Shown piece by piece: positions 33,072 to 34,986 of a stretch of 34,986 nt of DNA (the stretch's first letter is position 1; every line of letters starts with the position of its first letter). Below the pieces are notes generated by a model, which was not told the origin of the DNA, did not search any database, and saw only the letters and a list, made by a program, of their open reading frames with translations. Location: contig NZ_JAUMYY010000015.1 in the NCBI RefSeq assembly GCF_030528405.1, forward strand, positions 2,349 to 37,334, given 5' to 3'. This DNA comes from Fusobacterium sp. GTDB lineage: Bacteria > Fusobacteriota > Fusobacteriia > Fusobacteriales > Fusobacteriaceae. A program made the position numbers and the translations under genes.

Positions 33072-33626
33072 ATGAGTATAAAAAATCAAGTAGAAGCTAT
33101 AATATTTTTAGGTGGAGATGAAAATAAAATAAAAGATTTGGCTAAACATTTTGCAATCTCAGTGGAAGATATGCTTAAAATTTTAGAGGAGCTCAAAGAT
33201 GACAGAAAGGATACAGGAATAAATATAGAAATAGAGGGAGAAGTTGTATATTTAACTACCAACCCTCTATTTGGAGATAGTATAAATAGATATTTTGAGC
33301 AGGAAAAAAAGCCTAAAAAATTGTCCTCTGCTGCTATAGAAACCCTATCTATAATAGCATACAGACAGCCAATTACAAAATCAGAGATAGAGAGTATAAG
33401 AGGAGTTTCGGTTGATAGAATTATTTATACTTTAGAGGAAAAAAAATTTGTCAGAAATTGTGGTAAGCAAGAAACGGGAAGAAAGGCTAATTTATATGAA
33501 GTAACGGATAGATTTTTAGCCTATTTGGGTATAAAAAATATAAGAGATTTACCAGACTATAGTTTATTAAAAGAAAAATTAAACAGAGAAGTTGTGGAAA
33601 CAGAGGTTTTAGATGAGAATAAATAA
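33072..33626 (+). CDS. scpB: Segregation and condensation protein ScpB
   Basis: ScpB is a winged-helix protein that binds ScpA and SMC in the chromosome-condensing complex. The 184-residue protein has the typical start (IKNQVEAIIFLGGDENKIKDLAKHF), and the highly conserved second winged helix LSSAAIETLSIIAYRQPITKSEIESIRGVSVDRIIYTLEEKKFV, ending in GRKANLYEVTDRFLAYLGI. Length is standard. ScpA is not in the window. AGGAG lies 13-17 bases before the ATG, a rather long spacing. It overlaps the pseudouridine synthase gene by 14 bases, the scpB-rluB arrangement seen in many bacteria. Confidence 0.94.
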   Translation: MSIKNQVEAIIFLGGDENKIKDLAKHFAISVEDMLKILEELKDDRKDTGINIEIEGEVVYLTTNPLFGDSINRYFEQEKKPKKLSSAAIETLSIIAYRQPITKSEIESIRGVSVDRIIYTLEEKKFVRNCGKQETGRKANLYEVTDRFLAYLGIKNIRDLPDYSLLKEKLNREVVETEVLDENK

Positions 33627-34326
33627 ATATTTAGCCACACTGGGCATAGCCTCAAGAAGAAATATAGATAAATTAATTCTTGAAGGGAAGATTTCAGTAA
33701 ATGGTAAAATTGCAGTACAGGGAATGGAAATTAGTGATGTTGATGAAATTATAATTGATGGGAAAAAAATAGAAAAAAATCTAAAACAAAATTTAAATGA
33801 AAAAGTGTATTTTATGCTAAATAAGCCCTTAGAAGTTTTATCCAGTTCCAGTGATGACAGAGGTAGAAAGACCGTTGTTGACTTAATAAAAACAGATAAA
33901 AGAATTTTTCCTATTGGAAGACTGGACTATATGACAAGGGGTTTAATTATTTTAACAAATGATGGGAATCTTTTTAATAGGCTTGTCCATCCTAAATCGG
34001 AAGTTTATAAAAAATATTATTTAAAGGTTTTTGGTGAACTGAAGAAATCAGAAATAGAACAATTAAAAAAAGGTGTGAATCTGGAAGACGGCAAAACCTT
34101 GCCAGCTAAGATAAACTCCGTAAAAATTGAAAACAATAAAACTTCCATGTTTATTTCAATAAAAGAAGGAAGAAATAGGCAAATAAGAAGAATGATAGAA
34201 AAATTTGGCTATAGAGTTCTTGAGCTTAGAAGAGAAAAAATCGGAGAATTAAGCCTAGGTGATTTACCAGAAGGTAAATATAGAGAATTGACAAAAGAAG
34301 AAATAGAATATTTATATTCATTGTAA
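33613..34326 (+). CDS. rluB: RsuA/RluB-family pseudouridine synthase
   Basis: This enzyme isomerises uridine to pseudouridine in rRNA. The 237-residue protein has an N-terminal S4 RNA-binding domain (INKYLATLGIASRRNIDKLI, then GKISVNGK) and the catalytic domain with GRLDYMTRGLIILTNDG, in which Asp105 is the catalytic residue. KEGRNRQIRRM near residue 190 is the other family motif. Whether it modifies 23S rRNA (RluB, RluE or RluF) or 16S rRNA (RsuA) cannot be decided with certainty. The pairing with scpB favours RluB. The ATG overlaps the scpB end, and a terminator follows 4 bases after the stop. Confidence 0.92.
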   Translation: MRINKYLATLGIASRRNIDKLILEGKISVNGKIAVQGMEISDVDEIIIDGKKIEKNLKQNLNEKVYFMLNKPLEVLSSSSDDRGRKTVVDLIKTDKRIFPIGRLDYMTRGLIILTNDGNLFNRLVHPKSEVYKKYYLKVFGELKKSEIEQLKKGVNLEDGKTLPAKINSVKIENNKTSMFISIKEGRNRQIRRMIEKFGYRVLELRREKIGELSLGDLPEGKYRELTKEEIEYLYSL

Positions 34327-34330
34327 AAAT

Positions 34331-34376
34331 GTTGTTGCAAATTATTAAATTAAAGTTGCGGCAACTTTTTTTATTT
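34331..34376 (+). terminator. Terminator after rluB
   Basis: GTTGTTGCAA (34331-34340) pairs with TTGCGGCAAC (34356-34365), with two G-T pairs, followed by TTTTTTTATTT. It isolates the following adhesin gene from the housekeeping operon. Confidence 0.8.
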
Positions 34377-34477
34377 AGCCAAATTTTTTAATAAAAATTT
34401 CTAAAGCAGGAAATTTCCTATACTTCAAATTTAAAAAATAAATACTTAAATATATTAAAATAAAATGTATAAATTTG

Positions 34478-34504
34478 TTGCATTTTTTTTTTTTTTGATA
34501 CAAT
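34478..34504 (+). promoter_or_regulatory. Adhesin promoter with poly-T spacer (candidate phase-variable promoter)
   Basis: TTGCAT (34478-34483) and TACAAT (34499-34504) are separated by 15 bases that are almost all T. An alternative -35, TTGTTG at 34475-34480, gives a spacer of 18. The transcription start would lie near 34511, about 50 bases before the adhesin start codon. A change in T number would alter the spacer length and therefore promoter strength. The remainder of the 233-base gap from 34327 holds the rluB terminator and a short GGAAATTTCC palindrome at 34409-34418. Confidence 0.6.
34483..34496 (+). repeat. Homopolymer tract of 14 T
   Basis: Fourteen consecutive T lie between the predicted -35 and -10 of the adhesin gene. 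It is the longest single-base run noticed in the window, and tracts of this length are prone to slippage during replication. Confidence 0.9.
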
Positions 34505-34559
34505 AAAATTAAGATAGGATTATGTGAATTTAAATAAAAAATGAAAAGGAGTGTTTATT

Positions 34560-34986
34560 ATGAAAAGAAGTTTAAAATTTTTAACACTTACATTATTAAT
34601 TTTATTAGCACAATTATCTTTAGCAGCAAGTTATGTACAAGGATCAGGAAGTGAAGGACATTCACAGGAAGTTGTAGCAGTTGGAATCAGTTATACTGAT
34701 GAAGACGGAGTGTTACATAAAAATGAAGCAGGAGATCCAACAGATACGACAATTAAGTATTATGCTTCAGCAGTAGGAGTAGGGAACAAAGCCAGTGGAT
34801 GGCAAAGTACCGCTTTTGGTGCTATAAATACAGCTAGTGGATGGAAAAGCTCTGCTTTTGGGAATAATAATACAGCGACTGGAGAACGAAGTTCTGCTTT
34901 TGGATATGCAAATGCAGCGAGAGGACTATTAAGTTCTGCTTTTGGATTTCTTAATGGAGCCAGTGGAAAATTAAGTTCTGCTTTTG
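34560..34986 (+). CDS. YadA-like trimeric autotransporter adhesin, 3' end cut by window
   Basis: The first 142 codons of a trimeric autotransporter are present, open to the right edge. Residues 1-23 form a signal peptide (positive start MKRSLK, hydrophobic core with LILLAQ, cleavage near LAAS). From residue 78 onward 14-residue head repeats of the YadA type follow: ASGWQSTAFGAINT, ASGWKSSAFGNNNT, ATGERSSAFGYANA, ARGLLSSAFGFLNG and a partial fifth, with a related SAVGVGNK unit before them. Such repeats form a left-handed beta roll that binds host matrix or cells. The stalk and C-terminal membrane anchor would lie outside the window. AAAGGAG (34546-34551) is 8 bases before the ATG. The upstream promoter contains a 14-T tract. 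No assignment to a particular ligand is possible. Confidence 0.88.
   Translation, partial: MKRSLKFLTLTLLILLAQLSLAASYVQGSGSEGHSQEVVAVGISYTDEDGVLHKNEAGDPTDTTIKYYASAVGVGNKASGWQSTAFGAINTASGWKSSAFGNNNTATGERSSAFGYANAARGLLSSAFGFLNGASGKLSSAF
34791..34986 (+). repeat. 42-base tandem repeats encoding YadA head units
   Basis: Units begin at 34791, 34833, 34875, 34917 and 34959 (the last partial). Each encodes 14 residues with the core SSAFG or STAFG, and the DNA segment around tctgcttttgg is nearly invariant. Copy number could vary by recombination or slippage, and the array continues past the window edge. Confidence 0.85.

What the first reader, a model, noticed from the sequence alone, without database searches (positions are those of the whole stretch)
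34478..34504. Poly-T tract in the promoter spacer of a trimeric autotransporter: candidate phase-variation switch
A run of 14 T fills the space between TTGCAT and TACAAT upstream of a YadA-like adhesin. Slippage in homopolymers between -35 and -10 is the known switch for several surface proteins in other bacteria. With the present count the spacer is 15 (or 18 with the alternative -35), so gain or loss of one or two T would move it towards or away from the 17-base optimum and change expression in steps. I know of no description of this in this gene.
Basis: partly seen in the sequence, partly recalled or inferred. Interest (0 to 1): 0.8.

Follow-up and report, generated by a model that had tools for sequence, protein, structure and literature searches.

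The report
Poly-T promoter switch shared by adhesins
A run of 14 T's sits inside the promoter of a bacterial surface adhesin, and the same promoter stands in front of at least four other surface-protein genes of this genome, which makes it a likely but unproven slippage switch for varying the cell surface.

Summary
In detail: 14 T (34483-34496) between TTGCAT (34478-34483) and TACAAT (34499-34504), 63 bases before the start of a YadA-type trimeric autotransporter of the CbpF family (Fusobacteriaceae, inferred). (1) It is a multi-locus feature: the same promoter, with exactly T14, precedes five autotransporter genes of two unrelated classes, and a sixth has T12 in the same place. No other genome of the family has more than one such site. 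(2) Long homopolymers before autotransporters recur in relatives: T15 and T16 in two other genera, and poly-G before trimeric autotransporters in both congeners and in G036, where four paralogous leaders carry G7, G9, G10 and G12. This makes slippage control plausible. (3) T14 gives the same TTGC to -10 distance as the non-homopolymeric promoter of a F. vincentii homologue, so T14 looks like the working length, not a sub-optimal one. (4) All five copies are exactly T14 despite diverged flanks, including one whose gene has an internal stop. That argues against fast random switching, or for selection on length. Tract variation between strains or reads could not be tested. Verdict: a probable transcriptional contingency locus family, a new member of a known kind. 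Variability is not shown.

The parts
34330..34372 (+). Probable intrinsic terminator of the upstream pseudouridine synthase gene (stem-loop plus T run); separates the adhesin from the scpB/rsuA-type genes
   Evidence: Fold of 34322-34378: -14.4 kcal/mol, z = -3.2; upstream gene PseudoU_synth_2
34392..34482 (+). Upstream part of the promoter block shared by the paralogous loci
   Evidence: 82-92% identity to C16, C19, C55 and C12; C12 and C29 contig ends carry further partial copies
34475..34480 (+). TTGTTG, candidate -35 (spacer 18)
   Evidence: Sequence; invariant in all five copies; F. vincentii cbpF has TTGTTG with spacer 16
34478..34483 (+). TTGCAT, candidate -35 (spacer 15)
   Evidence: Sequence; same TTGC to -10 distance in G028 and in a F. 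vincentii CbpF-like promoter
34483..34496 (+). T14 homopolymer
   Evidence: identical length in C16, C19, C55 and C12 copies
34496..34504 (+). Extended -10 TGATACAAT
   Evidence: Sequence; TGN-TAYAAT kept in C65, G028 and both F. vincentii homologues
34546..34551 (+). Shine-Dalgarno AAGGAG
   Evidence: Sequence
34560..34986 (+). 5' part of a trimeric autotransporter adhesin (CbpF family, YadA head repeats), truncated by the contig end
   Evidence: YadA_head 31.9 bits; 62% identical to the full-length paralogue P0001, which matches solved CbpF structures 9gh4 (E 2e-89) and 9u93

Best explanation
The T14 run is the spacer of an extended -10, housekeeping-type promoter that drives a surface adhesin. 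It belongs to a family of at least five (probably 6-7) autotransporter loci carrying the same promoter. Shown: the anatomy, the multi-copy sharing, and recurrence of homopolymers in front of autotransporters in relatives. Inferred: slipped-strand mispairing adds or removes T's, which changes the distance and helical phase between the -35 contacts and the -10, so promoter output changes in a graded or on/off way, independently at each locus. T14 is most likely the high-output length, and gain or loss would lower expression. Independent switching would give a population a mixed set of adhesins.
For: T14 in five paralogous promoters, upstream of two unrelated autotransporter classes (YadA type at C16, C19, C55, C63; PF03797 type at C12), and T12 before a third type at C65. 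Pattern with 0 control hits, and at most one site per genome in 60 relatives. T15 between TTGC and GGTACAAT before an autotransporter in G028, and T16 with a 17-base spacer before a trimeric autotransporter in G036. The family uses slippage-type tracts on surface genes: G7, G9, G10 and G12 in four paralogous leaders of G036 trimeric autotransporters, and G10 before a fifth; both G8+ tracts of G001 precede trimeric autotransporters; two of four in G002 precede trimeric autotransporters and a third lies exactly between TTGACA and TATAAT; the only G8+ tract of this genome is in frame at the signal peptide of a TonB-dependent receptor. Conserved spacing with F. vincentii. Precedents: poly-C in the opc promoter (PMC3447861), poly-G at uspA1 (PMC7302503), poly-T at sabA (PMC4081817).
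Against: All five copies are exactly T14 although promoter blocks differ by up to 16% and far flanks or coding parts by more. The copy at C55 keeps T14 although its gene has an in-frame stop. No T run in the genome exceeds 14. The genome is a draft with contig breaks at these repeats, so tract lengths rest on an assembler's consensus. Copies are paralogous, so they are few independent origins. An extended -10 may make the promoter tolerant of spacer change. The trimeric autotransporter at C12:52.8k has no long T run.
Confidence: 0.55

Rival explanations
1. A fixed-length T-rich spacer: the T tract is a stable structural element (stiff, narrow-groove DNA favouring RNA polymerase or sigma contacts) kept at one length by selection, with expression set by ordinary regulation and no contingency switching.
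For: Identical T14 in five copies with diverged flanks; same register in G028 and in a F. vincentii promoter with an interrupted T-rich spacer; F. nucleatum promoters have a pronounced -10 and weak -35 (PMC11005410). T12/T13 near the promoters of an rpsJ-like gene and a dehydrogenase-like gene (names from reading the translated starts) show that long T runs also occur before housekeeping genes here.
Against: A pure 14-base homopolymer is not needed for a T-rich spacer (F. vincentii does without), it is intrinsically slippage-prone, and the longest runs concentrate on autotransporters in several genera.
Confidence: 0.27
2. The shared block is mainly a recombination or duplication cassette: promoter, autotransporter and a downstream 164-aa helix-turn-helix gene were amplified together, and gene conversion keeps the promoter, tract length included, uniform. 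Regulation, if any, is by the helix-turn-helix protein.
For: Seven loci with the HTH gene or its remnant beside an autotransporter in this genome (C5, C12, C17, C19, C51, C55, C66), plus a short remnant at C31; found after the autotransporter gene at C19, C55, C66, C5 and C51 and, with autotransporters of the other class, at C12 and C17; one homologue in each congener, directly upstream of a trimeric autotransporter; promoter blocks more alike than coding parts.
Against: Copy-to-copy differences persist within the promoter block; HTH binding to this promoter is untested, a hairpin with a T run follows the adhesin stop at C55, and HTH copies at C12 and C51 are interrupted.
Confidence: 0.12
3. 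Chance or assembly artefact: an A+T-rich genome throws up long T runs, and the equal lengths come from collapsed repeats in a draft assembly.
For: Base composition gives about 0.02-0.09 T14+ runs per window and strand; an unrelated T14 exists at C23; contigs end inside these repeats.
Against: Position between conserved -35-like and extended -10 elements in five loci plus C65, G028 and G036; 0 control hits in this genome; the copies have distinct flanks.
Confidence: 0.06

Closest known systems
opc / porA-type transcriptional phase variation (Neisseria meningitidis)
   Same: A homopolymer in the promoter of a surface protein gene, its length setting transcription; in opc, 11 C versus 12 C changes expression (PMC3447861). 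The porA parallel and the exact position between -35 and -10 are from general knowledge.
   Different: Poly-C/poly-G there, poly-T here; single genes there, at least five autotransporter genes sharing one promoter here; length variation shown there, not here.
sabA T-tract rheostat (Helicobacter pylori)
   Same: Poly-T of similar length (T13-T17 the commonest) controlling an adhesin (PMC4081817).
   Different: The sabA tract lies upstream of the core promoter and works through UP-like elements; here it lies in the -35/-10 spacer, so spacing itself would change. Strain variation T5-T28 is documented there, none here.
uspA1 (Moraxella catarrhalis) and nadA (N. meningitidis)
   Same: Trimeric autotransporters with simple-sequence repeats that change mRNA level or promoter output (PMC7302503; PMC2791445). 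UspA1, like CbpF, binds CEACAM1. nadA also has a dedicated DNA-binding regulator.
   Different: Different repeat units and positions; the NadR-like role of the neighbouring HTH protein here is only a possibility.
CbpF of Fusobacterium nucleatum/vincentii
   Same: The adhesins are CbpF-family proteins (PDB 9gh4, 9u93); promoters share TTGNNN, a T-rich spacer and an extended -10.
   Different: The two F. vincentii promoters have no run longer than T6 in the spacer; phase variation was suggested but not shown there (PMC6346709).

Membership tests
Simple-sequence-repeat transcriptional phase variation (opc/porA type) | Homopolymer located between -35 and -10 of a promoter | tested here: met
   promoter inferred from conservation, no mapped transcription start
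Simple-sequence-repeat transcriptional phase variation (opc/porA type) | Tract length varies within cultures or between strains | not testable with these tools
   one genome of the species, no reads; five paralogous copies are all T14, which does not support variability
Simple-sequence-repeat transcriptional phase variation (opc/porA type) | Tract length changes transcription | not testable with these tools
   needs transcript or reporter measurement
Simple-sequence-repeat transcriptional phase variation (opc/porA type) | Controlled gene encodes a surface structure | tested here: met
   YadA-type or Autotransporter domains at the loci scanned (C12, C16, C19, C63, C65); C55 by homology to P0001
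[quoted passage not shown]
   the tract is immediately upstream of the extended -10
CbpF-family trimeric autotransporter | YadA head, stalk and membrane anchor; homology to CbpF | tested here: met
   full-length paralogue P0001 has all three and matches CbpF structures; the window copy itself is truncated, so its anchor could not be seen
CbpF-family trimeric autotransporter | Binds CEACAM1 | not testable with these tools
   function inferred only from family

The most novel reading that the evidence does not exclude
A genome-wide combinatorial adhesin switch: one slippage-prone poly-T promoter module has been copied in front of about six or seven autotransporters of two structurally unrelated classes, each copy switching independently, with a co-inherited helix-turn-helix gene in most copies that may feed back on the module.
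Probability: 0.3. Interest if true: 0.8.

Novelty: new member of a known kind. Interest (0 to 1): 0.6.

Why it matters
Whether fusobacterial trimeric autotransporters such as the CEACAM1 ligand CbpF are phase variable is stated as open in the literature (PMC6346709). These loci make it directly testable by counting T's and G's in existing reads. If true, strain-to-strain differences in adhesion and immune recognition of fusobacteria could partly be tract-length states rather than gene content, and one promoter module would control several unrelated surface proteins.

Tried and rejected
Generic promoter/terminator scan: does not call this promoter. Terminator reading of the T run: rejected, because there is no stem immediately upstream; the real terminator-like stem is at 34330-34372. 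Scan of viral contigs: nothing. A plasmid search with a housekeeping protein (CobN) gave no useful relatives. Strain variation: no data of the species held. Literature search found no description of such tracts in Fusobacterium, within an open-access library only.

Full report
OBSERVATION. The window reads ...AAATTTGTTGCA-T14-GATACAATAAAATT... with T14 at 34483-34496, TTGCAT at 34478-34483 (15 bases from TACAAT at 34499-34504), and TTGTTG at 34475-34480 (18 bases). The TACAAT is preceded by TGA, an extended -10. A Shine-Dalgarno AAGGAG lies at 34546-34551 and the start codon ATG at 34560. A start at about 34511 would give a leader of about 49 bases, against a median of 39 reported for F. nucleatum (PMC11005410). 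The upstream gene (pseudouridine synthase, 33613-34326) ends in a stem-loop with a T run (34330-34372), so the T14 is not that terminator. The contig, and so the adhesin gene, ends at the window's last base.

NOT JUST CHANCE. The next longest T run in the window is 8; 0.02-0.09 T14+ runs are expected per window and strand from its own statistics, so a T14 somewhere in a 1.66 Mb genome is not by itself remarkable. Its placement is. A motif of TTGYR, T's and TTTGNTACAAT occurs six times in this genome and in none of 60 other family genomes, with no hit for the reversed control. T12+ followed within four bases by TAYAAT occurs at seven places here and at most one place in any relative.

A PROMOTER SHARED BY AUTOTRANSPORTER LOCI. 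The same block, with exactly T14, lies at contigs C12 (start), C16, C19, C55 and C63 (the window). Further partial copies end contigs C12 and C29 just before the tract. C16, C19, C55 and C63 lead to CbpF-like trimeric autotransporters. C19 is full length, with YadA head, stalk and anchor, and its best matches in the PDB are CbpF structures 9gh4 and 9u93. The C55 copy has an in-frame TAA. C12 leads to an unrelated 902-aa protein with a PF03797 autotransporter barrel. C65 has TTGCG-T12-GCTACAAT before another autotransporter-like protein. Not every such gene has the tract: a further trimeric autotransporter at C12:52.8k has only T5 after TTGCG, and of the eight PF03797 matches over cut-off only two are known to have it, with two others truncated at contig starts. 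A 164-aa HTH_17-like gene follows the autotransporter gene at C19, C55, C66, C5 and C51, and is also found at C12 and C17, whose autotransporters are of the other class. Copies at C12 and C51 carry a stop (the C17 identification rests on the contig's first bases, which resemble the end of the C12 protein). In both congeners the single homologue lies directly upstream of a trimeric autotransporter. F. vincentii has a homologue at 55% identity.

RELATIVES. Other genera show the same kind of promoter at autotransporters: G028 has TTGC-T15-GGTACAAT before an autotransporter/OmpA protein, and G036 has TTG-T16-GGTTTATAAT (17-base spacer) before a giant trimeric autotransporter. Poly-G tracts tell the same story. 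In G036, four closely similar leaders of trimeric autotransporters carry G7, G9, G10 and G12, and a fifth, different leader has G10. In G001 both G8+ tracts of the genome lie before trimeric autotransporters. In G002 two of four do, a third (G11) lies exactly between TTGACA and TATAAT some 250 bases before a lipoprotein gene, and the fourth (G14) lies upstream of, or within, a large reading frame that I read as a repeat-type surface protein. This genome's only G8+ tract (G9, C63:279-287, about 2.1 kb left of the window) is in frame at the signal-peptide end of a TonB-dependent receptor (named from its sequence). Slippage-prone tracts on surface genes are thus a habit of this group.

WHAT T14 MEANS. 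The distance from TTGC to the -10 is 17 bases in the T14 promoters (TTGT in C16), in the T15 promoter of G028 and in the F. vincentii CbpF-like promoter TTGC-TATTCATTTTTATTTGA-TATAAT, which has no pure tract. The T12 of C65 and the 13- or 16-base spacings of the other F. vincentii cbpF promoter show that the rule is not absolute.

WHAT SPEAKS AGAINST FAST SWITCHING. Five of five copies are T14, although their promoter blocks differ at up to 9 of 57 upstream positions, and even the C55 copy with a stop codon keeps it. The G036 poly-G paralogues, by contrast, differ in length. Either selection or gene conversion holds the length, or the tract slips slowly, or the assembly consensus hides variation. 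These cannot be separated without reads or further strains.

CONCLUSION. A probable family of slippage-controlled promoters, mechanistically like opc (a homopolymer in the promoter setting transcription) rather than sabA (a T tract upstream of the core promoter; PMC4081817). Confidence 0.55 that tract length is a functional contingency switch. It is filed as a new member of a known kind, with the two defining experimental features (length variation, effect on transcription) untested.

Noticed in passing
G000 contig C63:279-287 (locus L264:279-287), about 2.1 kb left of window position 1: The only G8+ tract of the genome: G9 in frame at the end of the signal peptide of a 673-aa TonB-dependent receptor, a classic translational phase-variation layout.
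   Followed up: partly
L221, L222, L223, L224, L225 (G036): Five trimeric autotransporter genes with poly-G tracts upstream; four share nearly the same leader with G9, G10, G12 and G7.
   Followed up: partly
L263:1055-1084 (G002 C5:402.06k): G11 lies exactly between a perfect TTGACA and a perfect TATAAT (spacer 19), some 250 bases before a lipoprotein gene.
   Followed up: partly
L110 and L111 (G001); L114:614-624 and L160:5596-5607 (G002): Poly-G tracts (G9, G9, G11, G12) upstream of trimeric autotransporter genes in both congeners; at L160 the tract lies between the HTH gene and the adhesin gene.
   Followed up: partly
L066:4531-5025, L106:1592-2086, L107:1400-1894, L065:8516-9010, L159:678-1178: A 164-aa family with two weak helix-turn-helix regions, found next to autotransporter genes across the genus and with a relative in F. 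vincentii; function unknown.
   Followed up: partly
L066:2484-4373: The C55 trimeric autotransporter copy is interrupted by an in-frame TAA in the head repeats.
   Followed up: no
L262:1185-1198 (G002 C4:151184-151197): G14 tract upstream of, or within, a large reading frame that looks like a repeat-type surface protein.
   Followed up: no
NZ_CP084075.1 (PLSDB): A 2.1 Mb F. vincentii record is filed as plasmid pSB055A; by size it looks like the chromosome.
   Followed up: no
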